The notes beneath the pieces were generated by a model. The model saw only the letters and a program-made list of their open reading frames with translations, was not told the DNA's origin and ran no database searches. Below are positions 29,457-59,971 of a DNA stretch of 64,000 nucleotides, piece after piece; position 1 is the first letter of the stretch, and every line of letters begins with the position of its first letter. Source of the DNA: Ceratorhiza oryzae-sativae (taxonomy: Eukaryota; Basidiomycota; Agaricomycetes; Cantharellales; Ceratobasidiaceae); assembly GCA_030998015.1 (NCBI GenBank), contig JARWMV010000253.1, forward strand, positions 372,001 to 436,000, given 5' to 3'. The position numbers and the translations under genes are program-made.

Positions 29457-30933
29457 TGTCACAACCTCTAGAAGCAGTTGTCAGGCCTTGCTTTACAAGT
29501 GGCTAATGCCCTTACTGGGTCTGGACTATGTCCTGACTACTGCTGATGTGTGGCTTGTCTTGGTGTGATGCCTTGTGTGTGTCTACTGTCTTGTGGCTGA
29601 TGGACACCTGTTGCTGAATAGGCAACTGTGGACAGTGGCTAAGTCAGGTGCTTAGGGCTGGGGCTTGCAACATGGTCTTGACTCAAGACCCTTCTAGCCA
29701 TTACTTGAGCTAATATGTCAGCTAGGGTGTCAAGACCCCCTGTTACTATCCTTTGGTCTTCCTTAAGTAGTGGCTACATTGGTTGTGTTGTCTATTTCTA
29801 TCTATTGTGTGTCTCTATTTTACAGTGTATGGTTGAGGTCCCTGTGTTGGACAAGATAAAGCAAGCTGAGGTGCTCCAGCTTGCTCTCTATTTCTTAAAA
29901 ACTCCACAAGATGTGGTCAGACCTTTCCACAGTCCACAGTGTTTACAGGTCACATGAGTGGTTTGGTCATGAGTAAACAGTGTGGATACCTCACATGATT
30001 GTCTATAAACCTTATGTAAGTTGCTCTTAGGGTTGTTGTGGCTCCAAATCTTATAGAGCTGCATGAGGTCCCAGGTTCATGTGATTTAAGCACTGGGGTC
30101 ACATGATAACTCACTCCTTACTCCTCATTACAAAGGAGAGATTTAAGAGGAGCAACTTGGTAAGCACCAAGATAAGTGCTGAGGTCACATGATAACTTGC
30201 TCCTCACTCCTCATTACAAGGGAGAGATTTAAGAGGAGTGACTTAGTAAGTGCTCAGCTAAGTGCCCAGGTCATGTGACAACTCACTCCTTGCTCCTCAT
30301 TACAAAGGAGAGATTTAAGAGGAGCAACTTGGTAAGTGCCAAGATAAGCACCAAGGTCATGTGATAACTTGCTCCTCACTCCTCATTGCAAGGGAGAGAT
30401 TTAAGAGGAGCAACTTGGTAAGCACTGAGATAAGTGCCAAGGTCATGTGATCTTGTTTATCCCCTGTTTGCCTTGGGAGGTAATGCTACTCATAGTAGAT
30501 TGACTCCTTAGTTCTGTTATGACTGCTGAGTAGGTCATGCCATAGGGACTGTTCTTCACACTGAGTGCTTTAGAGGGGAATTGACAAGGTAGAGCAAGCT
30601 GGGGTAGACTGGCTTGCTCTCCTTGTTTTTATACCATTCTAACCAAGGGAGTGACTAAGTGTACATGCAGGATGAGTAAGAAAGAATGGCAGTGATCAGT
30701 TGGCCAGTTACTAATAATAGTATGTCCATCAGTCAGCAAGTAACTAATAATAGTAGCATGAGTAAGGTGAATGGCAGTGATCAATAAGTGAGCAACTAAT
30801 AATAGGATGATGCTCAGTAAGCAGGTGGAGGTGCTTACTCATGAGGGAGAGGTGGTCAAGCCACAAGACAAAAAGGCAAAACAAAGGAAAAAATGATGGT
30901 TAGCCATGAGACCTTTGATTGTGGCTCATGACA
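29457..30933 (-). repeat. Solo LTR, family 3, interrupted
   Basis: Begins TGTCACAACC and ends GGCTCATGACA, flanked by the 5-bp direct repeat GCTAA at 29452-29456 and 30934-30938. Its reverse complement matches the solo LTR at 54593-55259 (for example CAAGATAGAGCAAGC-like and GAAGAACAGTCC blocks). It is split by another LTR at 29728-30542. CpG is almost absent. Confidence 0.8.
29728..30542 (-). repeat. Solo LTR, family 2 (same family as Gypsy element 2), inserted in family-3 LTR
   Basis: Starts TGTCAAGACC and ends GGTCATGCCA, with TSD TAGGG at 29723-29727 and 30543-30547. Read in reverse it is a CpG-depleted relative of the LTRs at 39458-40106 and 50580-51360. It contains about four tandem ~101-115-bp units (30.06-30.45 kb), each with an AGGAGC...GCTCCT-type inverted arrangement. 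Confidence 0.82.
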
Positions 30934-39400: not shown

Positions 39401-39457
39401 CCAAAAGGGCCATGATGAACTTAAGGCAGCTCTGGAAATAGCAAACCAGAGGATCAA
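36435..39457 (+). pseudogene. pol: Pol of element 1, 5' part: protease, RT, RNase H, integrase
   Basis: Order: aspartic protease (MIDSGATSVFI), reverse transcriptase (PSRSPMASPVIFVKKKNG, catalytic YMDDILVFS), RNase H (ETDASGYATGAVL), integrase zinc site and DDE core (TYDLITGLPLSEGFDAIFTV, SDRSPNF, HPQTDGQSEQAN). One in-frame TGA at 37428-37430 sits where Arg is usual in this RT motif (WGFNLI-R/*-IWEGDEW), consistent with a CGA-to-TGA change. The reading then continues in the same frame until element 2 enters at 39458. The remainder of pol is at 51366-51873. The start overlaps the gag stop by four bases. Confidence 0.93.
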
Positions 39458-40106
39458 TGTTATGACCCGCCTAGCAGACATAACCTAACAACCTAATATT
39501 GTACAGATTTATGGCATTTTTCCTGAAGCGGAACAAACCATAAACAGGATCACGTGATCTTGGCGCTTACCCAACAATTAAGTGCCGGTGGTTACCCTGA
39601 ACTTGCTCCAGCATTTCTCTCCCATGTTACTTGGAGCAAGGAGCGAGTTGTCATGTGACTCGGCGCTTACAACGATTAAGCGCCGGTGGTTACCCTGAAC
39701 TCGCTCCAGCATTTCTCTCCCATGTTACTTGGAGCGAGGAGCGAGTTGTCACGTGACCTTGGCGCTTACCAGCGATTAAGCGTGCTTAAGTCCAGGTCAC
39801 ATGACCCTCAGACCTCGTGGGCTCTATAAGATTCGGAGCCACACAAACTTAAGACAAACAATTACCTAACCTAGTACTATATAACCTACAACTGCTGTGC
39901 GCTTAGAAAAGTCCGCAGCCACCGCAGCACAGTATATAAAGGGGATAAAGCAAGACTGGAAGCCTCAGCTTGCTTTATCTTGTCAACCACCATAGACCAT
40001 AGCAAACACTGTAACTAGAACACTCAATACATACTGCATAGCACCAAACCGTCAACGCAGCCACTACTTAAGTGCTCCACAAGGGAGCCTCCAGAGGGTC
40101 ACGACA
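39458..40106 (+). repeat. 5' LTR of Gypsy element 2
   Basis: 649 bp, TGTTATGACC...GGTCACGACA, with two tandem ~99-101-bp units (39.55-39.78 kb). Each unit has a GCGCTTA...TAAGCGC-type inverted repeat and an ACTCGCTCC...GGAGCGAG inverted repeat. TATA-like GTATATAAAGGGG at about 39931. Confidence 0.92.
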
Positions 40107-40227
40107 TTATAAAGCAAGCTCTTAACTTAACTAGTGGCGAACATAAGTATACTGCACAGATACTAAGGGCTGAGTACACGAGAAAACCAGCTAACTCCTG
40201 TGATACATAAGAGAACATAAAGAAACT

Positions 40228-42058
40228 ATGTCACAGAGACCACAAACTCGATCTCAAAGCAGAGTGGCAAATAGTAGGCCACAATCACCCAAACCCATTG
40301 CTTCCCCAGAGGCTGAAGGTAACCCAGATGAGACCCTCCAAGGAATGCCAGGGGGGTTGCCACAAAACCCACGACCAGTGGCTCAACCCAACCCCACTCG
40401 GGCCCCCATCCTGGGAGGGGAAATAGGGGGAATACCACTCCGCAGCCCTCAACCGCCAATTCACCTGATAAATCCAGACCCAGAAGATATCTCAAATCCA
40501 GAGAGGGATGAGGTAGAAGATATGACCCGAACCATATACGAACAAGGCACGCCTTGGCGGAAGAGGCAAGGACACAACCCCAGCCAGGTCCCGGAGCCAT
40601 AGCCACTGCCAACCCTATTCACACCATTGCCACGGCCATCAGGGCGGGCTCAAGGAACTTAGAGACAATAATCATAGGGAACTAGAAAAGGCAATCACGG
40701 TATAAATCAGTGTCAAATATCACTAACCCGACAAGAAGGAAACGTGGACTGGATGGTAAGGTCAATGGAAACATCCAACAAAAATGTCCTCTATGTGGCA
40801 AAGAACCAGGACGACCTAAAAGCAGAAATGGGGAACCTGATAAAAGAATTAAAGGACATCTCCATGGAAATAAACCGGGTACTGGGAATGCAAGAGCGAA
40901 AGCTCGAAAGCTTAGAGAAGAAAACCGAAAACACAGGGGAGATCCTAATCGCACTAGAACAACGGGTAACCGATCTAGGAAATGAGCTCCGGAAAACAAC
41001 TGAAGCAGGAAGGCCAAGGGAAAGGACAGAAGAAACCAGGGGAAGAACTAGGGTGGTCATAGGAAGCCCCTCACGATCCCCCTCAGCCTCCCCAGTACGA
41101 ACACCCTTTCTGGGAAGAACCTTCCAGGCTGAGTCCACAATAAGACCCCGAACAGAACCTCCATCCCAAGCAAACCAACCTACCCTTGCTGCAAACCACA
41201 CTCCTAAGGAGGCGAGACTAGGGAGACCCAGCAAATTTAATGGGAAAAAGGGGAAGGAAGCAGAGAACTTCATAATCAGCATGGAACTTTTCTTTGCTGA
41301 CTATGACGAATCAGCCTTTGATGACCGAAAAAAGATATCTGCTGTGCTAATGAACATGGAGGATGGGGAAGCAGCAAACTGGGCACAACCTTACCGCCGG
41401 AAACTACTAGCAGGCGAACACACAGGTATTCTTGCATCCTGGAAGGATTTCAGGAAGGGATTCCTGGATGCTTTTAATGACCCAGTCATAAAGGAAAAGA
41501 CCATCCGGAAACTAAGGAAATTAACACAGACCAAGAGTGCATTGGATTATGCTACCCAATTCCATCCTGATCCAAGAGGTAGACTGGAACCAGGAAGCCC
41601 TCAAGGACCAATTCAGGGAAGGGTTAAAACCCGAAGTACGACAAGAGATCTTAAGGATTGAAGTACTGGCAAATGAGGCTGAAGGTCCATCATATACCTT
41701 AGATCAATTAATTGACTTTGCCTGCAAAATGGACGACATGCAGTTTGCAAACCAGAAAATGAATACAAGGACCAGCAACTCATCAAATTCAACCTGGGCA
41801 CCAGCGAAATACAAACAAGGGGGGAACAAGCCTTTAGGGACCAGCGGCAAACAGGGGAATACCCAAACCAACAACATGGTAAGGATACCAAACAGTGAAA
41901 AGGACAGGCGAAGGAAAGAAGGACTCTGTATCAAATGCGGTAAATCAGGGCATGTCCTGAAGGAGTGCCGAGGCCAGTGGACCTACGACAAAGCTAAGAT
42001 ACAAGGGAAGGCCAGCAGACAAGTTGAGGAAGAAAGCAGCTCTGAGTCGGAAAACTAA
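40228..42058 (+). pseudogene. gag: Gag of Gypsy element 2, frameshifted
   Basis: Pieces: 40228-40602 (ATG start, Pro/Gln/Ser-rich leader), 40744-41661 (coiled coil, RS-rich linker, capsid part PSKFNGKKGKEAENFI and WKDFRKGFLDAF) and 41537-42058 (LKDQFREGL, CCHC knuckle CIKCGKSGHVLKEC, acidic tail). Frame changes fall at about 40560-40740 and 41560-41580. Confidence 0.88.
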
Positions 42059-42075
42059 TTGGTCCTACCACTTCC

Positions 42076-44156
42076 ATGTTGGAGGACCCCAATATAACCC
42101 CTACCGCAGATGTATGTTACCTCAAGAAGTCTAGTAATCAATCAATAATATACACTACGGTAGAGGGAATCATGGAACCAGCTAAGACGCTGATTGACTC
42201 AGGATCTTCAACCAACTTCATCGATAAGGCCTATTCAAGGGAAAAAGGGATTCCAACCACTCCCCTCAAACACAAGAAATCAATTGTGGCCATTGATGGA
42301 AATGAAATCAAGGATGCCATAGAAGAAAGGGCAGAACTAAACATCGAAGTGGAAGGGAAGACACTAAAATGCTCCCTTTATGTAATGACCCTAGGTGACA
42401 CAGACATAGTCCTAGGGAAAGAATGGCTTGAAGAAGCAGAACCTATCATAGATTGGAAAGACCTTACCATCTCATACCCAGACGAAATCAAGGCAAGGGC
42501 AGCAAGTGAAAGCCTACAAATCCCAGAAGAATTTAGGGATTTTGAAGACCTATTTGGGGAAGAAGGTTTCCAGAACTTCCACCCCACCGAGGTAACCTAG
42601 ACTTCAAAATGGACCTGATCGAGGGAGCGGAGCTGCCAAAGCCTGCAAAGAGGTACAGTATGTCGCCAGCAGAAACAAAGGCGCTCAGGGAGTACCTAGA
42701 GGAGGAACTAAGAAACGGGAAAATAAGGCCCAGCCAGTCAGTTGTAGCTGCACCCTGTTTCTATGTGAACAAAGCAGATGGAGGGCTTAGGTTGGTAGTC
42801 GACTACCGTAAGATGAATGACATCACCAAGCCAGACAGGTTTCCACTTCCAATCCAAATAGAATTGATTGAGAGACTGAAGGATGCAACCATCTATTCAA
42901 AAATGGATGTTCGATGGGGGTTCAACAACATCAGGGTAAAAGAGGGAGACGAATGGAAAACAGCTTTCAGGACAGGAGAAGGCCAGTTTGAATGCTTGGT
43001 CATGCCATTCGGAGTAAAAGAAGGACCAAGAACCTTTACCAGGTTCATGATGGAAAAGTTCCGTGATATAATAGACGATTATGTGGTAATCTACATGGAC
43101 GATGTACTAGTGTTTTCCAGAAACAGGGAAGAACACGTACAACATGTCAGGGAAGTGTTAAGAAGAATGAGGGAAAACCACCTCTTCCTCAAACCACACA
43201 AGTGTCAGTTCTTTGTGAAGGAGGTAAGCTTCATTGGAATTGTCATATCCCCAGAAGGGATATCGATGGAAAAGGAAAAGGTAAAGGCAGTTCTAGAATG
43301 GCCAGAACCTAACACAGTAAAAGAAGTCCAAGCCTTCCTAGGCTTTGGGGTTCTATAGAAGGTGGATAGAGAAGTTTAGTACCTTAGCCAAACCCCTCAC
43401 AGATCTCACCCAAAAAGATGTCAAATTCCTGTGGGAAAGAAAACAACAGGAAGCATTTGAAGCTATCAAAGAAGCAGTAGCAAGAGAACCGTCCTGATCC
43501 ACCCAAACCCAAACAGGCCATACATACTGGAAACAGATGCCTCAGGAGTGGCCATGGGGGCGGTACTAAGCCAAAAGGGTGATGACAACCGATTGCATCC
43601 AATTGCCTTCCTATCGAAGAGCTTCACCCCACCAGAGAAAAATTATGACACCTACGACAAGGAGTTGCTTGCAATTGTTAGGTCCTTAGAGCACTGGAGG
43701 TTATACTTAGAAGGGACAGAGGAACCTATTGTGATATACACTGACCATAGGAACCTCCAGTACTGGCAAAATGCCCAGATGTGGAATAGAAGGCATGCCA
43801 GATGGTATCTCACTCTGGCACCCTTCAATTTTCAGATTGTGTATAGACCAGGGAAACTCTCACAGAAGCCAGATGCCCTTTCCAGAAGGAGCGACCATGG
43901 GGATACCCCTATGGAACCACAGATCATGATTCCAGAAGAAAGGTTCATAGGTTTCATGGCAGAAGTACAGGGGAATTTCTGGGAAGAGCTTAAAGAAGCT
44001 CAGGAAGAAGACGAATCTATCAGATCCTTAAGGCTGAGTGTGGCAAATAAAGAACAACTACCGCCCTCAGTACAGAAGGAATTTAGACGGTATGAAATGA
44101 AGGAGGGCCTATTAAGGTATGACGATAGGCTCTACATCCCGATGACAAGGACTTGA
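42076..44156 (+). pseudogene. pol: Pol of Gypsy element 2: protease, RT, RNase H
   Basis: 42076-42600 holds the retropepsin motif LIDSGSSTNFID. 42609-43358 holds RT from RPSQSVVAAPCFYVNK through the catalytic YMDDVLVFS to FLGF. After a frameshift at about 43345-43360 the thumb and RNase H follow (ETDASGVAMGAVL, DPKELLAIV-like, TDHRNLQYW), ending at 44156. A second shift lies at 42598-42605. Catalytic residues are present, but the polyprotein cannot be made without frame correction. Confidence 0.9.
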
Positions 44157-45481
44157 GGTTGAGTCTCCTTGAGGAGTGCCATGACGCCCCAGTGGCAGGT
44201 CATCAGGGACAAGCCCGAACACTAGAATTACTATCAAGGGATTACTATTGGCCAGGAATGAAGGCCCAAGTAAACCGATATGTGGAATCTTGTGAAACAT
44301 GTCAAAGAAGCAAAGGACACAAACAAGGCACTCCCCTGAAGTCCTTACCAATCCCATGGAAACCATGGGCAGATGTCGCATATGATTTCATCGTCAAATT
44401 ACCTGTCTCAAAGGGGTACGACAGTATCTTGACAGTTGTAGATCGCTTCTCCCGGCAGGCCCATTTTGTACCATGTCTGGAGAGCACCAATGCAGAAGAA
44501 CTGGCAGAAATATTCATAAGGGAAGTATGGAGACATCACGGGACCCCAGAAACCACTGTCTCAGACCGAGGGCCAACCTTTAACAGCCAATTCCTAAAAG
44601 CCCTATACAAAGGAATTGGGACAAAGCCCAGATTCTCCACTGCTTTCCATCCAGAAACAGATGGTCTGTCGGAAAGGACAAATCAATGGGTAGAAGGGTT
44701 CTTAAGAACCTTCTGCAATTATAGACAAGATGATTGGGTAAAATGGTTACCCATTGCCGAATTCTGCCATAACAACCACGTAAATGCTACAACAGGACAA
44801 ACCCCATTTGAAACAGTATATGGAAAAAACCCAAGATGGGTTGTCCGAGAGGGAGAAGAACCATCTGAGGCACCCGCTGCAGACAACATGCGTAATCAAA
44901 TGGAAAAGGTATGGGATGAGGCAAGAGCCTCAATGGAATTACACCAACAAATGGAAAAGAAAGGGAGGGAATTCAAGGTAGGAGACAAGGTTTGGCTGCT
45001 CCTAACAAACCTCTCGTCCAAGAGACCCTCCAAGAAACTGGACAACCGAAAAGGGGGGCCCTTTGAAATCACAGAAAAGATCTCATCCCATGCATATCGC
45101 CTGGACCTACCTAAAACCATACGTGTACACAATGTATTCCATGTAAATCTCCTCTCGCCATTCACAGAAGATAAAGACTTCCAAGAAGGCAGGCCAAACC
45201 ACCACCAATCATAACGGAAAAAGGAGAGGAGGAATACAGGTGGACCACATTGCAAATTATGAATGGCGAATGGCGAGCTGTTTTACCAAATCAGATGGAA
45301 GGGCTACGACCCAATAGAAGACACAATGGAACGTGCCAGCAAGTTTGCTGACATGAAAGAGGTTCTAAATGACTTGCAAAGGCGCTTACCAGACGCACCA
45401 ATGCCAGTCAAGACAAGTCAGCACTCAGGTGACTCGAAAGGCAGGCCAAAGAGAACCAAACGAGGATCTGGAAAGCTTTAA
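44153..45481 (+). pseudogene. pol: Pol of Gypsy element 2: integrase and chromodomain
   Basis: 44153-45214 holds the HHCC zinc site (ECHDAPVAGHQGQ, CETCQRSKG), the DDE core (DFIVKLPVSKGYD, SDRGPTFNSQF, HPETDGLSERTNQ) and the GPY-like region (VGDKVWLLLTNL, GGPFEITEKISSHAYRLDLP). After a shift at about 45200-45262 a chromodomain-like piece follows (FYQIRWKGYDPIEDTMER, to 45481). Chromodomains steer insertion to heterochromatin in this clade. Confidence 0.9.
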
Positions 45482-45567
45482 AAAGAGCCATCCAGGATAC
45501 CCAAGAAAGGCCAGAGCCCGCTCTACCACCTCACTTGCACCACAACACACCTGCGAAACCCCAAAAC

Positions 45568-46387
45568 ATGCCTTTCGTCACTCACCCAGTCGCACATCCC
45601 AACCGTTACACCCCACTTGCTGAAAATCAGGTGGCCCCACTTCGGCAGCCACCCACCACCAGGTGGCCAGCACCCTACCCTGGCAGGGAAAATCGTCCTA
45701 AACCAGGGATGTACTGCTCCAGTGTGGAAGACGCCCAGAGGTACGCCGAACGACTGTTGCCAGGGGCTAACCTAGTACATCCCAAAGAAGTTAAGGGATG
45801 AAAGGAACTGGATTGACGATGACAAGTACCTGGATCCCAGGTTAGGGGTCCTGACATGGCATGGAAGCTGGAAGCCAACAACAAGAAACGCCTTGTTAAG
45901 AACACTGATGTATGTCGTTGACAATATCGTGGGACCAACAGTCGACGTGGTGACCAAGGCAGCAAGACAACAGAGGAGGGCCACAGGCCAAATGGCAGAC
46001 AGAGGGGACTGGGAGGTGGAGCGCCAGGCAAAGGCATTGCTGGAAGAATGGAAGTTGACACCAGCTGCACCGTATGTGGGACTGCTCGAAGCAACTACCA
46101 CTGATGAGATGTTTACTGCTATCAGGACAAAGCAGGCAAACATGAGTGACTTCCGAAATTGGGTGAAGGTGCACCCAAACAAAAACACCAATTACAACAC
46201 TGATATGACGAGCCTTACATCAAGCCTAGAATCACTGGTCGTGGCTGAGGAAGAAGCCAAGCCAGAAATAAAGGAACCCACCCTGGACCCAGCTGCGGAG
46301 GAAGCCAAACAGGACTGGGACCAGTGGGAAAACGAGCTTGTCGAAGCTCTGGAGGAGGTGCCACTGTTGGAACCAACCCCCATATGA
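45568..46387 (+). pseudogene. Cargo ORF A, unknown, one frameshift
   Basis: Not recognised. ATG at 45568; the first frame (Pro-rich N-terminus, then GMYCSSVEDAQRYAERLLPG) ends at 45801. A one-base slip in the AAA run near 45785 continues into a second frame (RNWIDDDKYLDPRLGVLTW) that stays open to 46387 with an acidic C-terminus. The combined product would be ~270 residues. It follows the chromodomain after ~90 bp and precedes a convergent ORF by ~80 bp. It could be a structural or regulatory partner of the Rep gene, or an extended gag-pol cargo protein; neither is shown. Confidence 0.5.
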
Positions 46388-46467
46388 CCACTTTGCCTCC
46401 CACAAATTGTCTCCCGAATGTATAAGAGTTTTATTTTCTTTTACACACCAAACTTAATACATTTCTT

Positions 46468-47004
46468 TTACTCTCTATTTTTACGTTTGCCCTTGAGGGG
46501 CCGGGTATAGGGCTTCTTGCCCCTTTTATCCTTCTTATTGGTCTGAACAACTGACCGGGTAGTGGGCTGCAGCCAAGGAGCCTCCCCCCCTGGGAAGTCG
46601 GCCATGTAGTTCTGGAAACACCCAGAACCAGACGCTGCAAAGGGCGAAGCCTCATCAAACAAGGGAGCAGAGCCCTCCTCGAAGAATTCGGCAAGAGCGG
46701 CCTGGTGAGACTGCTCCTCAAAGGACTTGTAGTCCTGATCAACGAGCGCCCAGACATGCTCAAGGGTGGCCTCATGGGCCCAACCATCAAGGAGGATGTG
46801 CTCTTCTACAGAACGAGTTAGCTACGTGAGAATGACGAACGAACACACATACCTGGCACCCCACAGAAGAACCAGTCCCCAACACCTGATAGAAGTCTTC
46901 AAGGGAGGCGTCGCACACGCATCACAGTAGGCGCAGTACTCCCCCTCAGGGAGAGACCAGCAGGTGCAGTCAAGGGGATTGTAGTTAAGGGAAATAACAC
47001 ACAT
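46468..47004 (-). CDS. Cargo ORF B, Cys-rich, divergent from Rep
   Basis: Not recognised. Read on the minus strand from ATG 47004: a Cys-rich start (CTCWSLPEGEYCAYCDACA), then, in a shifted frame, SLEDFYQVLG, HILLDGWAHEATLEHVW, an acidic FEEQSHQAALAEFFEEG helix, and a basic Lys/Arg tail ending with TAA at 46468-46470. At least one frame change lies at about 46800-46910; an intron (GTATGT... to TAG near 46808) or a lesion could explain it. It diverges from the Rep gene across a 542-bp intergenic region, the arrangement seen between Rep and capsid genes of many CRESS-DNA viruses. The basic tail is suggestive only. Confidence 0.45.
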
Positions 47005-47121
47005 GGTATAGACGGGATGAGGAAGGAAAACAACAAAAACCACAAACATTAAAAAATCACAGTGCAACACAATAACTTGCACAAACATCAAAACAAGGTC
47101 TGGTCAGGTGACACCAACAGA

Positions 47122-47243
47122 CACGTGACCATCTGCCAGAAAACAAACAACAAAGCATGGGAATCACATGACCTAGCCTAGTCACGTGACCACCTGCCAG
47201 AAAACAAACAACAAAGCACAGGAATCACATGACCTAGCCTAGT
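47122..47243. repeat. Two 61-bp direct repeats in Rep/ORF B intergenic region, plus nearby hairpin
   Basis: CACGTGACC starts at 47122 and 47183, and CACGTGA again at 47244, giving an exact 61-bp period; the units differ at few positions. Each contains the E-box CACGTG and a near copy CACATGA. A perfect 5-bp stem, CCCCT/AGGGG with a 9-nt loop, follows at 47262-47280. The region must hold divergent promoters. A role as iterons or origin is inference. Confidence 0.75.
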
Positions 47244-47546
47244 CACGTGAATATACGCTATCCCCTAACTACTGGAGGGGTCGGAGAGGGGGCACCGACC
47301 AGAGTGGAGGAGCGGAGGCCCCGAGCGTAGCAAGGATCAAGGCCGACGCAGAGGAACGGATGGAAGGGCACCCCTCAGAGATGCGTCATCACCGAAATAA
47401 GGTCATGTGATCACAACAAATGCAAGACGGAGTCATGTGATGATCAAAACAGACCTTGCAGCTTATGTAGACAAGCACAAGGCCCAAGATAACCCGCACT
47501 CTCATGCTCTCTTCCCAGTCCCCAAATACCTCTAAAACTGTAAACA

Positions 47547-50282
47547 ATGCTAAGCAGAAATGGATCGAACGTGGCAACACCCCAGCCAAGCGGATCAAGC
47601 GAAGGGCGGAGGTTGGCGTTGCCATTGCCAGCGCCCTCGGTATCAAGCCGAGCCCCCTCGCCCGCTTCTATGCAGCCTACGCCGACGGATCGAGGGTCCG
47701 AAGAGCTGACTGAAACCGTGCCAGCCCCTCGGTTCTGCATCCAGACCAGGGCAGTGCTGCTGACCTGGTCGAAGCTACGCGATCAGCCCTCAAGTGGGCT
47801 CGTCACCCGATACGAGGCATTCTGCCGCCAACGGCCAAATCATTGGGCAACTTTGGCAGTGGTGGAACGCCACAACCCTGAGGAACCAAACTACGACCCG
47901 GCCTGGCCCCTCCATGTCCATGCCCTCTCCATCAGTCAGGAGCAGAAGGGCGGCTGGAACACCCAGAACACCCGGTTCTGGGACTTCGAGGGGCAACACC
48001 CCAACATCCTGCCGAAGGACCTCAAGGACGGACCAGGAGGCAACCCTGCAAGGGAGGCTTTCAACTACCTCTGGAAGGATGTCGGAGCTAACGGCGAGGA
48101 GGTAGAGGAGCTGATAGCGGGGGACCTGACCTTGGAAAGGTTGGAGGAAATCCTGGTGAAGGGGAAGGGCAGGAAAAGGTCGAGGGCAGAGGCAGACCTG
48201 GAGGACGGGGCAGAGATTGTTGCCTTGGCAACAAAAAAAGAGTACTACCAGGCATTCAAGCACCTGCGCCCCCTCCAGATGGTGACGACGTGGAACTCGG
48301 TACGAGCATATGCTGAGTACACATATAAGGAGGACCGGGGATGCATGCCTGCAATCCCGGTGGAGTTGGAAGTCCCAGAAGACCGGGCACACATCGACAG
48401 GGCGGACCGATGGTTTGCGGAAGAGGCTGAGAAGAGAGGGAGGGGCGTGCGCCATTGCATCCTGGTGATTGAAGGCGAAACAGGAACTGGGAAGATGGCG
48501 TATGCGTAGAGGTGCTGTGCCAGGCTCCTGCAGCCAGAACTTGCCAGAATTCTGGCTAAAATTCCAGCGAATTCCAGTGTGCCAGTTGCCAGTGCAGGTG
48601 CCAGAATAGCCTCAAGGGTGCCAGAGTCCTAGGCGGAGTCCTGCAGTACTGGCATACCTGCATACCTGCATACCTGAATACTGGCACATTGTCACCTGTA
48701 CACGACCACCACGGATTGCATATATTAAGCACTCATAAAATGCGCAAAATTCAGCAGATCAAATTGTACTTTACTTGATTACAAACGGTTAAGAAATGAG
48801 CAGTATCGGCGCAGAATCGTCTAAGAAAAATATTCAGGGGGATGCGCAGATGTTCAAGCTTGCTATCCTGAGATCTAATTGGGGCGATATACATACTAAT
48901 CGACTCGTCTCACTGAGAGGAATCGAATGCACATATTTTCATAATAAACGAACGCTTTTATCGAAAGTTATCAGCGATATAAAGGGGGAAACCCCTGAAC
49001 AGCGCCACAAGCGCTAGTGAAACCAGCCGTGCAAACCTCGCTCCCTTGCGCGGAGTCGATGCGCATTATCATAAGGACTCTATATACCAAAAACCAGCCT
49101 GATTGAAGGTGTTTTAGCTGGTGAAACTGGGGGAACAGCGCCCCTGATGCTGAAAACCCCCTGAAATGTGCCATGGACACCCACACAGTGCTATTCTGGC
49201 TTTCTTAGTATCACAGACAGATTCAGAGATGCTTATTGCCCTATCTCAGGTACCTGAAACATCTGGAACAAGCTTATAACATAAATTTCCGACCATGTGC
49301 AGTGATTCTGCTGGGTTGACAGTGAGGTTGCCTGCACACACCCCGGTTCATAGTTATCCAGTCAATGTATTTACTAGATATAATGTCAGTAGGGGTTTTT
49401 CAAGCTCAGGAGAAAGGCTAGCTGGTCGGATAAGCTTCAAACAGCTTTCTTTGTGGTGAAATAGCATGTGCGCATTTCCCAGAATATTTCCTGAGCATCA
49501 ATTTGGAGCGAACTATGCGTTATCGAATTTTTTGCGCGGAGCAAATGACATATCTGTGATCTCCTGATTTTTTCGCATTTAATGAGCTACTTTGCAAGAG
49601 ATTGTGGTGAGGTTTATGGCCCTGGAAATGTTGGCCACAAAGACCCAAACAAAAGAACTGCGTAAAATTTGCCAGAATGAATTTCGTATGAAACGTGCTC
49701 TATATCATTGGAATGCTCTCTCTTCTGCGCATCTAATGAGCTATTACACAACTTGATGTGGTGAGTTCTGACCATAGCCAGTTGCAGGAGTCCCGGGATT
49801 CTGGCATGCTCCTGCACCTGCCAGAATTCTGGCACAGACTCTGGCAACTGGCGAGCCAGTGCCAGTGCCAGTGCCAGAATGGCCAAAAAGCACAGGAGTC
49901 CTGCTGCAGGTGCCGGAGTCCTGCAAAATTCTGGCACAGCTTCTCTATGTATGCGCGATCCAAGGGCTCCCATAGCCAGATGTGCAACATCTGGAACGTG
50001 GGGAATCTGTTGGAGGATGCCGACATCTGGATCCTGGATGACATGGTCCAGTCAAATGGGAAGTACTCGCTCAAAGCCCTGAGCCAGTACGAGGCAGACT
50101 TCACAGGCAGATATGCTCATGTGAAGTCAATGAAGGTATGGCTGACGGTGATCCTGGGGAATAGCCAGTCGGCCATAATGAAGTGTTGGACAGACATAGA
50201 GGGGGAAGAAGGGGACTTATGGGTATCCAAAAACGTAGACTGGGTATACTCAGGAGGGAAGCCATTTTTTGTTTTTCCTTAA
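47547..50282 (+). pseudogene. CRESS-DNA-type Rep (HUH endonuclease + SF3 helicase), split by hAT-type insertion
   Basis: Two pieces, 47547-48506 (320 codons) and 49956-50282. Residue positions in the first: motif I-like LLTWSK (71-76), HUH motif LHVHALS (122-128), geminivirus-type GRS-like RFWDFEGQHPNI (~143-154), motif III YLWK with the nicking Tyr (174-177), Walker A GETGTGK (310-316). The Walker A Lys is followed by Met instead of Ser/Thr, which would weaken ATPase activity. The second piece has Walker B DIWILDD and a motif-C-like LTVILGN. The single Tyr plus SF3 helicase fits geminivirus/genomovirus-like Rep, not Helitron Rep. A 1441-bp element (48507-49947) introduces a stop at 48507. 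Apart from that break the two pieces are in compatible register. A ~60-residue Ser/Pro/Arg N-terminal extension is unusual. Confidence 0.87.
48507..49947. mobile_element. hAT-type non-autonomous element, 1441 bp, inside Rep
   Basis: Terminal inverted repeats: left TAGAGGTGCTGTGCCAG, right (reverse complement) TAGAGAAGCTGTGCCAG. The 8-bp TSD is CGTATGCG (48499-48506) and TGTATGCG (49948-49955), one mismatch. No transposase frame is present. The interior is rich in CTGCAGG/GAATTCTGGCA palindromes near both ends. A second copy is at 58538-59971. The TAGRG ends and 8-bp TSD point to the hAT superfamily. Confidence 0.86.
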
Positions 50283-50378
50283 AAAATAAAAATAAATTAT
50301 CTTTGTATAAGCTGTTTTATTCACAGACCATGTGTCGAGAAGTAAGCTTAAACAAGGAAATAAGCAAGGAGAAAGTAA

Positions 50379-50484
50379 TCTCATGTAGTGTAGAGGTTAA
50401 GGGGTCTAGCCTGACTCATCATCTCCTAGCTGAGCAATTACACATCGAACGGAAGGTCGTTGGTTCGAGTCCAGCACCCTTAAC
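50379..50484 (+). ncRNA. tRNA-like Pol III relic (A and B boxes)
   Basis: Consensus A box TAGTGTAGAGG at 50386-50396 and consensus B box GGTTCGAGTCC at 50462-50472, with a T-arm-like GTTGG-loop-CCAGC. The boxes are ~75 nt apart instead of ~45, and no 7-bp acceptor pairs cleanly, so this is not a normal tRNA. It could be a tRNA with an intron and eroded ends, or a SINE-like fragment. It lies between the Rep gene and the polypurine tract. Confidence 0.4.
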
Positions 50485-50579
50485 CTCCTCGATATATGAG
50501 ATACCTTTTAGAAACTTTTAGAACCCAGAAAAGAAACATGCCTCGAGATCCCCCAAGACATGTCCAAAGGGGGGGATAA

Positions 50580-51360
50580 TGTTATGACCCGCCTAGCAGA
50601 CATAACCTAACAACCTAATATTGTACAGATTTATGGCATTTTTCCCGAAGCGGAACAAACCATAAACAGGATCACGTGATCTCGGCGCTTACCCAACGAT
50701 TAAGCGCTGGTGGTTACCCTGAACTTGCTCCAGCATTTCTCTCCCATGTTACTTGGAGCAAGGAGTGAGTTGTCATGTGACCTCAGCGCTTACCCAACAA
50801 TTAAGCGCCGGTGGTTACCCTGAACTCGCTCCAGCGTTTCTCTCCCATGTTACTTGGAGCGAGGAGCGAGTTGTCACATGACCTCGGCGCTTACCCAACG
50901 ATTAAGCGCCGGTGGTTACCCTGAACTTGCTCCAGTGTTTCTCTCCCATGTTACTTGGAGCGAGGAGCGAGTTGTCACGTGACCTTGGCGCTTATCCAGC
51001 GATTAAGCGCCGGGTGCTTAAGTCCAAAGGTCACATGACCCTCAGACCTCGCGTGGCTCTACAAGATTCGGAGCCGCACAAACTTAGGATAAACGATTAC
51101 CTAAGACCTAGTACTATATAGAACCTATAACTGCTGTAGACGGCGCTTAGGAAAAGGGGGGCCACTGCAGCAACTGCAGTCACATGTATATAAGGGGAGT
51201 AAAGCAAGACTGAACGCCTCAGCTTGCTTTATCTCATCAACCACCATAGACCATAGCAAACACTGTAACTAGAATGCTCAATACATACTGCATAGCACCA
51301 AACCGTCAACGCAGCCACTACTTAAGTGCTCCACAAGGGAGCCTCCAGAGGGTCACAACA
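50580..51360 (+). repeat. 3' LTR of Gypsy element 2
   Basis: 781 bp, preceded by the polypurine tract AAAGGGGGGG. It is 132 bp longer than the 5' LTR, mostly because it holds three instead of two ~101-bp tandem units (TGGTTACCC at about 50711, 50812 and 50913). One unit contains GGCGCTTA, a 9-nt loop CCCAACGAT, then TAAGCGCC. Confidence 0.92.
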
Positions 51361-51365
51361 ATCAA

Positions 51366-51873
51366 GGAATACTACGACCAGAAGCATCGGACTCCAGAAG
51401 CTATTAAGGTTGGAGACAAAGTCTGGCTTGATACCAAAAACATACGGACACAGCAGGCCTCCAGGAAACTGGCCCACAAAAGAGTTGGACCATTCAGGGT
51501 GGTAGCACAACATGGCACACATGCCTACAAGCTGGACCTACTGATAACCATGAAAATACACCCAGTGTTTCATGTCTCACTCCTGACCAAATATAAAGAT
51601 GACCCCTATGGCTGTCAGGTTCCCCCACCACCACCTGTGGTAACTCCTGAAGGGGAAGAAGAATTCAAAGTGGAACAGATCATAAAGTCACGATACAACA
51701 AAAGATCTAATGTCTTTGAATACTATGTCAAGTGGCTTGGCTATGACGAGCAACAATGGTTAACCTATGATGACCTGGTGAACGCACCAGAACTCATCGC
51801 CAACTACGTCAAGTCGCACCCAAAAGCACCCCAGGACCCCTGTGCCTTGAAGGGGGGAAGTGTCACGAACTGA
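51366..51873 (+). pseudogene. pol: Pol of element 1, 3' part: integrase C-terminus and chromodomain
   Basis: Displaced from the rest of pol by element 2. It begins in the integrase tail (EYYDQKHRTPEAIKVGDKVW), passes through the GPY-like GPFRVVAQHGTHAYKLDL and HPVFHVSLL, and ends with a chromodomain (VEQIIKSRYNKRSNVFEYYV, WLGYDEQQW). The TGA at 51871-51873 lies 13 bp inside the 3' LTR. The frame is in register with 39457 across the ATCAA duplication. Confidence 0.92.
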
Positions 51874-58537: not shown

Positions 58538-59971
58538 TAGGGATGCTGCACTGGAATTTTGCAGGAGTCCGCCTCCTGCAGGTGGACTCCTTGCATTTTT
58601 CTTGATTCCAGCTCCAGCTCCAGCTCCGGCAGGCCAGGAGCCAGACTCCATACAGAATTCTGGCAGGTGCAGGAGCTTGCTGGAATTCTGGGGCTCCTGC
58701 AACTGATTTGGTTCAAATCTCGTCACATTCAGTTGTGTAATAGCTCATTAGATGCGTGTGACTGAGGGCTTTCGAATGGTATATAGCACGTCTCATAAAA
58801 AATTAAATCTGTTGAATCGCAGGCGGTTTTATGTTTTTGAGTCTCAAGGCCAATATCTCAGTTACTGTAAATCCCACCACATCCGCTTCGTTAGTAGCTC
58901 ATAAAATGCGCAAAATTCATGGGATCCTGAATATGTCTTTGATTTTGTTCAGAAATTTCATCTATACATAGATCGCACAAGATAAATGCTCAAAAAATAT
59001 TGTTACAAGTGCGCAGATCCTATCTCAGCCCAAAGACTGCATTTTGAGACCAAAACAACGAGCTAGGCGTGTTCCTGGACCTCAAAAACCCCCTACTAGC
59101 ATTGTATCTTTCCAACACACAGGTTGGATTGCCATGAACTGGTATCTGTGCATGAGTTGTGGTGACATTCTAGCTGAATAGTTGCACATAGTCGGAAAAT
59201 TATGTTAAATTACTGTTTTAGAGCACACCAGACATATAGAATAGGGTAATAAATATCTCTGAATCCATTTATGATGCTCAGAGAGTCTGTAGTCAAGTGT
59301 GCGCATGTGCAGAGGCGATTTAGGGGTATTTTAAGCATCAGGGGGGCATGTTCCCTGGATTTCACCCACTAATACAGCTCCAATCATGCTGATTTTTGGT
59401 ATACTAAATATTGGGAGTGGTTCGCATCTATTCATGACAGGAGAGCGAGATTCCCATGGCTGGTTTCACTAGTGCTTGTGGCGCTGTTCAGGGGCTAATC
59501 CCCTGTATATCGCTTACATCTCCTCAGAAATGCGTCGGATCAGGATGTGAGTATGCTCATTCAATTCCTCCCGGCGAGACGAGTCGAATGGTATATGTAT
59601 GTCCGTATTTCCTACTAGTTTAGGGGAGCATGAGTGGCTGCGCTTCCCCTGATTATTTTCCCCAGACTAAAATGCGTTGATCTCTCTCAGTTTTGAGCTC
59701 CAAGATATGATGTGCATATCGATCGAACGCGCTGAATTTTGCGCATTTAATAATTACTTGAGCGCAATAAACAGTGGTGGTCATGCAGTGGTGCAGGAAT
59801 GCCAGTCTGCAGGAATGCAGGAATGCAGGAGCTGCAGGACTCCACCAAGGACTCTGGCACCCCTGGGGCCATTCCTGCACCATCTCTGTCTCCTGCAGTG
59901 CCGGAATATGCCAGAAATTCATATGGAATTCCTGTGCATTCTGTCTGCAGGAGCCTGGCACAGCACCCCTA
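58538..59971. mobile_element. hAT-type non-autonomous element, second copy, 1434 bp
   Basis: Left end TAGGGATGCTGCACTGG, right end (reverse complement) TAGGGGTGCTGTGCCAGG, with a perfect 8-bp TSD TTTCAGCT at 58530-58537 and 59972-59979. Length and ends match the copy inside the Rep gene (1441 bp). No long frame is present. Confidence 0.84.

What the first reader, a model, noticed from the sequence alone, without database searches (positions are those of the whole stretch)
47547..50282. CRESS-DNA-type Rep gene carried inside a Gypsy LTR retrotransposon
Between the chromodomain and 3' LTR of element 2 lies a Rep with an HUH motif (HVH), a single-Tyr motif III (YLWK), a geminivirus-like HPNI block, Walker A, Walker B and a motif-C-like segment. 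A single-strand DNA replication initiator as cargo of a retrotransposon would join rolling-circle and reverse-transcription lineages in one mobile unit, or record a viral gene captured by one. The cargo appears bounded by ordinary element 2 sequence and shares its insertion event (TSD ATCAA outside the LTRs).
Basis: partly seen in the sequence, partly recalled or inferred. Interest (0 to 1): 0.92.

Follow-up and report, generated by a model that had tools for sequence, protein, structure and literature searches.

The report
Retrotransposon carrying a rolling-circle Rep gene
This fungal genome holds at least 125 copies of a gene resembling the replication starter of single-stranded DNA viruses, most of them at one fixed place inside an RNA-copying jumping element; the gene was likely captured from such a virus or plasmid and is predicted to cut the element's own DNA.

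Summary
Element 2 (39458-51360, TSD ATCAA) is a Ty3/Gypsy chromodomain retrotransposon. Its cargo encodes a Rep with the ordered motifs of the GRS-bearing (geminivirus/genomovirus-type) CRESS class: motif scores 64.9-91.0 in five tested proteins, shuffle maximum 34.1. Of 125 Rep matches scored in the own genome, 105 have the element's ORF X upstream; 20 of 20 fetched copies have the 3' LTR downstream. Two sister Gypsy loci (integrase 64-65% identical) go from ORF X straight to a polypurine tract and probable LTR, without Rep. So a ~2.7-kb unit (antisense ORF Y, intergenic region, Rep) was probably inserted there and inherited. Rep shows purifying selection (median pairwise dN/dS 0.19-0.23; neutral simulation mean 0.60). 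The window copy is dead: a 1,441-bp hAT-like insert splits Rep. Not shown: fold, nicking, target, origin, expression; no curated HMM cut-off is reached. The best mechanism, Rep acting on the element's own extrachromosomal DNA, is inference. Seven literature searches listed no LTR retrotransposon with a CRESS Rep.

The parts
39453..39457 (.). 5' target-site duplication ATCAA
39458..40106 (+). 5' LTR (649 bp), 94.5% identical to the 3' LTR over 649 aligned columns
40744..45214 (+). gag-pol: Retrotrans_gag/Ty3 capsid, zinc knuckle, aspartyl protease, RT, RNase H, integrase; split over several ORFs in this copy
45269..45481 (+). chromodomain remnant (PF00385, E 0.00027, 21.2 bits, under the 25.1 cut-off)
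45568..46387 (+). ORF X (about 300 aa in intact copies; frame broken here); no relative found at E <= 0.01 and no Pfam match
46468..47004 (-). ORF Y, antisense, two predicted exons around a short GTAYGT...TAG intron; frameshifted in this copy; ends read from the sequence
   Evidence: exon-1 dN/dS 0.19 in 18 copies
47005..47546 (.). divergent intergenic region between ORF Y and Rep; 61-bp tandem repeat 47119-47240, six TCACRTGA/TCAYGTGA sites, GC-rich block 47230-47393 conserved among copies
47504..47713 (+). overlapping frame Z (69 aa here, longer in other copies), +2 relative to Rep, more constrained than the Rep frame over Rep codons 1-70
   Evidence: extent read
47547..48506 (+). Rep, N-terminal piece: motif I, HVH, GRS (HPNI), YLWK, Walker A (GKM in this copy)
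48507..49947 (.). 1,441-bp hAT-like non-autonomous insert (TIR TAGAG..GCTGTGCCAG; TSD CGTATGCG/TGTATGCG); not part of Rep
49956..50282 (+). Rep, C-terminal piece: Walker B (WILDD) and motif C (ILGN); not joined to the first piece
50566..50579 (+). polypurine tract AAAGGGGGGGATAA
50580..51360 (+). 3' LTR (781 bp) with 101-bp tandem repeats
51361..51365 (.). 3' target-site duplication ATCAA

Best explanation
A Ty3/Gypsy retrotransposon family of this fungus carries, between ORF X and its polypurine tract, a predicted divergent gene pair whose sense gene encodes a Rep of geminivirus/genomovirus motif type that was likely captured from a CRESS-DNA replicon and is predicted to nick and unwind the element's own extrachromosomal DNA. 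Shown here: the fixed position, copy number, motif set, absence from two sister loci, and purifying selection. Inferred: that the ~2.7-kb unit (ORF Y antisense, intergenic region, Rep sense) is a linearised CRESS virus or plasmid; its ambisense layout and size fit, but no capsid gene or canonical origin was found. Predicted and untested: Rep is made from the intergenic promoter, enters the nucleus, and acts on unintegrated circular DNA of the element (1- or 2-LTR circles), raising the number of templates for transcription or integration. The short palindromic site TCACRTGA/TCAYGTGA recurs in the intergenic region and the LTRs and is absent from gag-pol; it could be the Rep binding site, or a host transcription-factor site. 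I put about 0.95 on 'retrotransposon cargo of CRESS-Rep descent, functionally maintained' and about 0.45 on 'acts on the element's own DNA'; the confidence below is for the whole statement.
For: Position and number: 3' LTR after Rep in 20 of 20 fetched copies, integrase-end sequence before it in 17 of 20; 85 of 125 Rep matches have a listed integrase upstream within 12 kb, 72 of them at 2.2-3.0 kb; 105 of 125 have ORF X, 97 within 2.5 kb; 36 of 40 intergenic-region matches have a listed Rep within 240 bases. Identity: seven-motif score 64.9-91.0 in five proteins, shuffle maximum 34.1 (300 shuffles each), higher z for the GRS-bearing than for the GRS-less rows in all five; 19 own copies score 57.2 or more; HUH and YxxK kept in 19 of 19 intact own copies; Gemini_AL1_M in register just before Walker A, best E 0.001, 8 of 34 members at E <= 1. 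Acquisition: L155 and L156 (integrase 64-65%) have ORF X, then a polypurine tract and probable LTR, no Rep or ORF Y at E <= 0.1 in 5 kb; L030 and L031 (74%) have X, Y, intergenic region and Rep in the same order. Maintenance: Rep dN/dS median 0.19 over 252 pairs of 23 copies, 0.11 in 128 far pairs; 16 of 18 off-frame control values from codon 151 on are 0.7 or more; neutral CpG-biased simulation 0.38-1.19, mean 0.60. Site sharing: 6 sites in the intergenic region, 4 and 5 in the LTRs, 0 in gag-pol, 0 in the sister LTRs.
Against: TAATATTAC with up to one mismatch is absent from the element, and the intergenic block folds only slightly better than shuffles (z -1.41; 16 of 200 fold as well). The palindromic site also occurs eight times at 29950-30443 in another repeat array and once in the Rep C-terminal piece, which points to a host factor. 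No Pfam CRESS model reaches its cut-off; PF00799 finds nothing in the genome, though it rang in none of the 14 control genomes either, and PF08283 did not pick up the family there (three unrelated weak places). Other P-loop models match as many or more members at weaker E-values (nSTAND3 17 of 34, AAA_22 10 of 34). Two protein searches named only Ceratobasidium, no virus. The Rep frame is weakly constrained over codons 61-100, which hold motif I (0.68). 22 of 171 pairs have dN/dS inside the simulated neutral range. Walker A is GKM in 4 and Walker B altered in 2 of 19 otherwise intact copies. In P0027 and L026 the profile's motif II fell beside the HUH. No expression data; the fold could not be predicted.
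Confidence: 0.45

Rival explanations
1. The Rep is genuine CRESS-derived cargo, but it is kept for another job: interfering with host silencing or acting as a DNA-binding regulator of the element's promoters, as reported for geminivirus Rep and C4 in plants, not replication.
For: A 2019 opinion paper cites work that geminivirus Rep and C4 lower host DNA methyltransferases (PMC6338049, passages). The family decays by transitions and mainly TGA stops, as expected of methylated or mutated repeats (30 of 36 LTR differences are transitions; stop columns). An overlapping frame Z at the Rep 5' end is constrained (0.35 against 0.79-0.80 in the Rep frame, codons 1-70), a layout like geminivirus C4 inside Rep (recalled). 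No origin was found.
Against: The nuclease tyrosine and both histidines are kept in 19 of 19 and the helicase motifs in most intact own copies; a pure regulator would not need all of them. No silencing assay.
Confidence: 0.35
2. The Y-intergenic-Rep unit is a mobile element in its own right that parasitises this Gypsy family and can move without it.
For: 20 of 125 Rep matches have no listed ORF X within 12 kb and 40 of 125 no listed integrase; Tuber has a Rep-bearing DNA transposon (PMC3198968).
Against: The lists are capped, and two of those 20 (C87 = L021, C240:9121 = L024) show pol to Rep contiguous by DNA; 20 of 20 fetched copies end in the 3' LTR; I saw no terminal repeats or target duplication of its own in the sequences that I read, without a dedicated search at every copy.
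Confidence: 0.06
3. The gene is not a CRESS Rep but an unrelated P-loop protein with chance HUH and HPNI strings.
For: No curated-threshold Pfam or PDB hit; no viral relative found; other P-loop Pfam models match weakly too.
Against: Motif scores far outside shuffles and z highest for the GRS rows; ordered regex 0 of 20,000 shuffles; Gemini_AL1_M in register.
Confidence: 0.03
4. Chance insertion of a viral fragment into one retrotransposon copy, no cargo.
For: In the window alone the Rep is split and dead.
Against: 125 scored matches, most at one fixed place, also in decayed subfamily copies with dS above 2.
Confidence: 0.01

Closest known systems
Geminivirus-like transposon of Tuber melanosporum (Liu et al. 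2011, PMC3198968; section 8 read in full, other passages)
   Same: A multi-copy fungal mobile element with a geminivirus-type Rep (42 genes or remnants).
   Different: That is a DNA transposon with 37-bp terminal inverted repeats and two transposase ORFs, Rep interrupted in the reported sequence; here the vehicle is an LTR retrotransposon, Rep is open and under purifying selection in many copies, and a second antisense gene travels with it.
Genomoviridae and Geminiviridae Reps (GRS-bearing Cressdnaviricota; motif table of PMC10821283, passages)
   Same: Order of motifs I, II, GRS, III, Walker A, B, C; HPNI-type GRS; single tyrosine; divergent gene layout from an intergenic region.
   Different: TW in place of TY and no Q in motif I; no capsid gene or nonanucleotide seen; integrated within a retroelement; too diverged for Pfam cut-offs.
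LTR retrotransposons with captured accessory ORFs (bdelloid rotifer elements, PMC5408684; orchid Gypsy with an RNA demethylase domain, PMC9289625; titles and starts of abstracts in search listings only)
   Same: An LTR element that gained and kept an extra gene.
   Different: Neither listing that I saw names a rolling-circle replication initiator as the captured gene; here it came with an antisense partner gene.
Helitrons (recalled; PMC6668415 passages)
   Same: Eukaryotic mobile elements with an HUH nuclease and a helicase.
   Different: They have no LTRs or reverse transcriptase (recalled), and the cited clustering paper finds them unconnected to CRESS Reps.

Membership tests
CRESS-DNA Rep, GRS-bearing class | Motif I (uuTYxQ) | tested here: inconclusive
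   LLTWSK/FLTWSK: T kept, W for Y, no Q; weak constraint there
CRESS-DNA Rep, GRS-bearing class | Motif II, HUH | tested here: met
   HVH or HIH in 19 of 19 intact own copies
CRESS-DNA Rep, GRS-bearing class | GRS between motifs II and III | tested here: met
   RFWDFEGxHPNIL against RAFDVDGYHPNILRGI of a genomovirus (table in PMC10821283); regex hit in 16 of 19 own copies
CRESS-DNA Rep, GRS-bearing class | Motif III with a single tyrosine, YxxK | tested here: met
   YLWK in 19 of 19
CRESS-DNA Rep, GRS-bearing class | SF3 helicase Walker A, Walker B, motif C | tested here: met
   GKT in 15 and GKM in 4 of 19; intact DD in 17 of 19; GN in 19 of 19
CRESS-DNA Rep, GRS-bearing class | Pfam Gemini_AL1 / Gemini_AL1_M above cut-off | tested here: not met
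   PF08283 at best 19.5 bits, cut-off 24; PF00799 not listed and nothing in the genome, with silent controls
CRESS-DNA Rep, GRS-bearing class | HUH fold plus SF3 ATPase fold | not testable with these tools
   job failed
CRESS-DNA virus (whole replicon) | Hairpin origin with nonanucleotide | tested here: not met
   0 of 4 near-matches to TAATATTAC in the window lie in the element (other nonanucleotides not searched); fold z -1.41
CRESS-DNA virus (whole replicon) | Capsid gene | tested here: inconclusive
   ORF Y exon pieces and ORF X of L017 have no Pfam match at E <= 1; ORF Y is short and cysteine-bearing
Ty3/Gypsy chromodomain retrotransposon | LTRs with TG...CA ends, TSD, polypurine tract | tested here: met
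Ty3/Gypsy chromodomain retrotransposon | gag, PR, RT, RNase H, INT in Gypsy order, chromodomain after INT | tested here: met
   (chromodomain under its cut-off in this decayed copy)
Geminivirus-like DNA transposon (Tuber type) | Terminal inverted repeats and transposase around Rep | tested here: not met
   LTRs, RT and integrase instead

The most novel reading that the evidence does not exclude
A hybrid element with two replication systems: an LTR retrotransposon that spreads by reverse transcription and integration, and whose unintegrated circles are multiplied by its own captured CRESS replicon (Rep plus intergenic origin plus partner gene), with the LTR repeats as Rep binding sites.
Probability: 0.3. 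Interest if true: 0.96.

Novelty: new variant of a known kind. Interest (0 to 1): 0.86.

Why it matters
Reverse transcription and rolling-circle replication are usually separate worlds of mobile DNA. Here a gene with the motifs of a rolling-circle initiator has become an inherited, selected part of a reverse-transcribing element, with an order of gain that can be read from relatives: first ORF X, later ORF Y and Rep. That makes it testable whether a retrotransposon can use a virus-type replicase on its circular DNA, and it shows a route by which ssDNA replicons can enter and persist in fungal genomes. If Rep serves another purpose, it is still a natural case of a viral replicase taken over by a retroelement.

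Tried and rejected
Pfam, PDB and PHROG scans of Rep pieces and family members: no hit over a cut-off. Viral contigs with the Rep alignment: 8 pattern stretches, none confirmed. PF08283 weak places L033/L034: ORFs read, nothing Rep-like seen. ORF X against 5.8 billion proteins: 0 relatives at E <= 0.01. Rfam over the element: only sub-cut-off microRNA-like hits in the insert. Origin: no TAATATTAC-like motif, weak fold. I first read 32 integrase matches without a listed Rep downstream as possible cargo-free copies. Of 7 of these 32 looked at, L029, L030 and L031 do hold Rep remnants, L157 holds X and Y without Rep in 5 kb, L032 is cut short by another element, and only L155 and L156 are cargo-free to their probable LTR. 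Parts of the database proteins outside Rep gave no match to the element by tblastn.
Full report
What was checked. The window lies at G000:C253:372001-436000 of an unnamed 48.8-Mb genome. The eleven best protein relatives of the Rep ORF are all from Ceratobasidium species, 62-76% identical, so the host is probably a fungus of that group (inference). Element 2 runs from 39458 to 51360 with ATCAA on both sides. Pfam finds gag, protease, RT, RNase H and integrase in Gypsy order and a decayed chromodomain. The element sits inside another Gypsy element, whose integrase tail and chromodomain lie in ORF 51274-51873.

The Rep. The N-terminal ORF (47547-48509) has no meaningful Pfam and no PDB hit, but the protein search returns 63 proteins at E <= 0.01, and a second search with 34 aligned members returns 90 at E <= 0.1. 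Those with an organism name are Ceratobasidium; the rest carry none. The family carries FLTWSK/LLTWSK, LHVHA, RFWDFEGxHPNIL, AFxYLWK, GETGTGKTAYAR, WILDDM and ILGN in this order. A published table of motifs for CRESS Reps (PMC10821283, table passages) served as an outside yardstick. Profiles from its eight GRS-class rows (two of them without their GRS string) score 90.6, 91.0, 87.4, 83.5 and 64.9 on P0003, P0010, P0027, L017 and L026. The largest of 300 shuffles per protein is 34.1. The same proteins have lower z for eight GRS-less rows that I used (5.0-6.9 against 9.4-13.8); the rest of the table was not used. The 19 intact own copies score 57.2 or more, median 87.6. In P0027 and L026 the profile's motif II fell on a neighbouring place, not on the HUH itself. 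Gemini_AL1_M is matched just before Walker A in 8 of 34 members at E <= 1, best 0.001 and 19.5 bits, below its 24-bit cut-off; other P-loop models match up to 17 of 34 members at weaker E-values. I conclude CRESS-Rep descent, GRS class, with the fold untested.

Cargo or accident. The own-genome search scored 125 Rep matches of 238 candidates. I fetched 20 copies, chosen because the table listed no internal stop, so they lean to intact ones. In 20 of 20 the 3' LTR follows Rep. In 17 of 20 integrase-end sequence precedes it in the fetched stretch (interrupted in L019); L023, L025 and L027 have other sequence there. 19 of 20 have an open Rep of 427-428 aa. Against capped partner lists, 85 of 125 Rep matches have the integrase upstream on the same strand within 12 kb, 72 of them at 2.2-3.0 kb; 105 of 125 have ORF X, 97 within 2.5 kb; 99 of 131 ORF X matches have a listed Rep within 4.5 kb; 36 of 40 intergenic-region matches have a listed Rep within 240 bases. 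Two of the 20 Rep copies without a listed ORF X (L021, L024) run from pol to Rep without a break by DNA.

When it was gained. Copies whose integrase is about 74% identical (L030, L031) hold ORF X, antisense ORF Y, the intergenic region and Rep in the same order (the ORF Y query was taken from L030, so its own match is trivial). L157 (73%) holds X and Y; Rep was not seen in 5 kb that include nested elements. L155 and L156 (64-65%) hold a weak ORF X match (20-24% identical, E 0.001 and 2e-7) and then, about 100 bases past its stop, AAGAGGGGGGCAATGTCATGAGCC, a polypurine tract and probable LTR start, with no Y or Rep at E <= 0.1 in 5 kb. The window's tract region resembles theirs by eye. So a unit of about 2.7 kb, the hAT-like insert not counted, probably entered between ORF X and the tract after that split (inference from 7 loci).

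The window copy itself. The 48507-49947 insert has TIRs TAGAG..GCTGTGCCAG and an 8-bp duplication with one mismatch, with copies in L015 and L023. Walker A reads GKM, ORF X and ORF Y are frame-broken, and the LTRs are 94.5% identical. It is a dead copy of a family with open copies.

How it may work. An HUH nuclease with a single tyrosine and an SF3 helicase starts rolling-circle replication in CRESS viruses (established knowledge). LTR elements make circular DNA by-products (general knowledge). The intergenic region has six TCACRTGA/TCAYGTGA sites, the LTRs four and five, gag-pol none, the Rep C-terminal piece one, against base-composition expectations of 0.017 for the intergenic region and 0.035 for the 3' LTR; the cargo-free sister LTRs have none. 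This would fit a Rep that binds both, but another repeat array at 29950-30443 has eight such sites, so a host factor is as likely. No TAATATTAC-like motif and no convincing fold were found. I therefore commit to self-directed nicking and unwinding as most likely, at under one half, with a regulatory or anti-silencing role next.

Mosaic evolution. Against the window, RT-integrase differs by 0.2-1.7% in 15 of 16 copies (3.8% in L026), ORF X by 1.3-28.1%, the ORF Y and intergenic part by 1.6-11.5%, Rep by 3.8-18.7% in L009-L029, and the 3' LTR end by 4.8-17.0%; in 300-base windows the step comes at about 45.3-45.6 kb and reaches 33%. Pol and Rep distances still correlate (r 0.76; 13 of 2000 permutations as high), with L026 far in both; pol and ORF X do not (r 0.29; 228 of 2000). 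So at least ORF X and pol have different histories, as expected if co-packaged RNAs recombine during reverse transcription (inference).

Literature. Seven searches (listings only, two of them showing 15 of 327 and 15 of 157 papers) listed no report of a CRESS Rep in an LTR retrotransposon. The nearest is the Tuber DNA transposon of Liu et al. 2011 (passages, section 8 read). Most subscription papers and bioRxiv preprints are not in that library.

Noticed in passing
window 42900-46500 against L009-L028: Pol is nearly identical among most copies but ORF X differs by as much as 33% in 300-base windows, with about three allele types and a step at about 45.3-45.6 kb: a mosaic family in which pol was swept or exchanged.
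   Followed up: partly
[not shown]
   Followed up: partly
window 48507-49947; L015 1506-2947; L023 2248-3681; window 59423-59971: hAT-like non-autonomous element with 8-bp target duplication; related pieces in the window in opposite orientation.
   Followed up: partly
window 50388-50486: A tRNA-like stretch by eye (GGTTCGAGTCC box) between Rep and the polypurine tract; ARAGORN and Rfam call nothing there.
   Followed up: no
window 29950-30526: 86-bp tandem array region with eight TCACRTGA-type sites, part of some other repeat.
   Followed up: no
own-genome Rep, INT and ORF X matches: In-frame stops in old copies are mainly TGA, and 30 of 36 LTR differences in the window are transitions, as expected from CpG or RIP-like decay.
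   Followed up: no
protein P0021 (Ceratobasidium sp. AG-Ba): Its tail (KGKKPYDRPVSRKRKRW) resembles the end of ORF Y (KKAKKPYTRPLKGKKK) by eye; tblastn at E 1e-3 did not confirm it.
   Followed up: partly
P0027, P0090: Metagenome Reps read through what looks by eye like an unspliced intron at GLVAR^YEAFCR; the window family lacks it, as if lost by retrotransposition of a spliced RNA.
   Followed up: no
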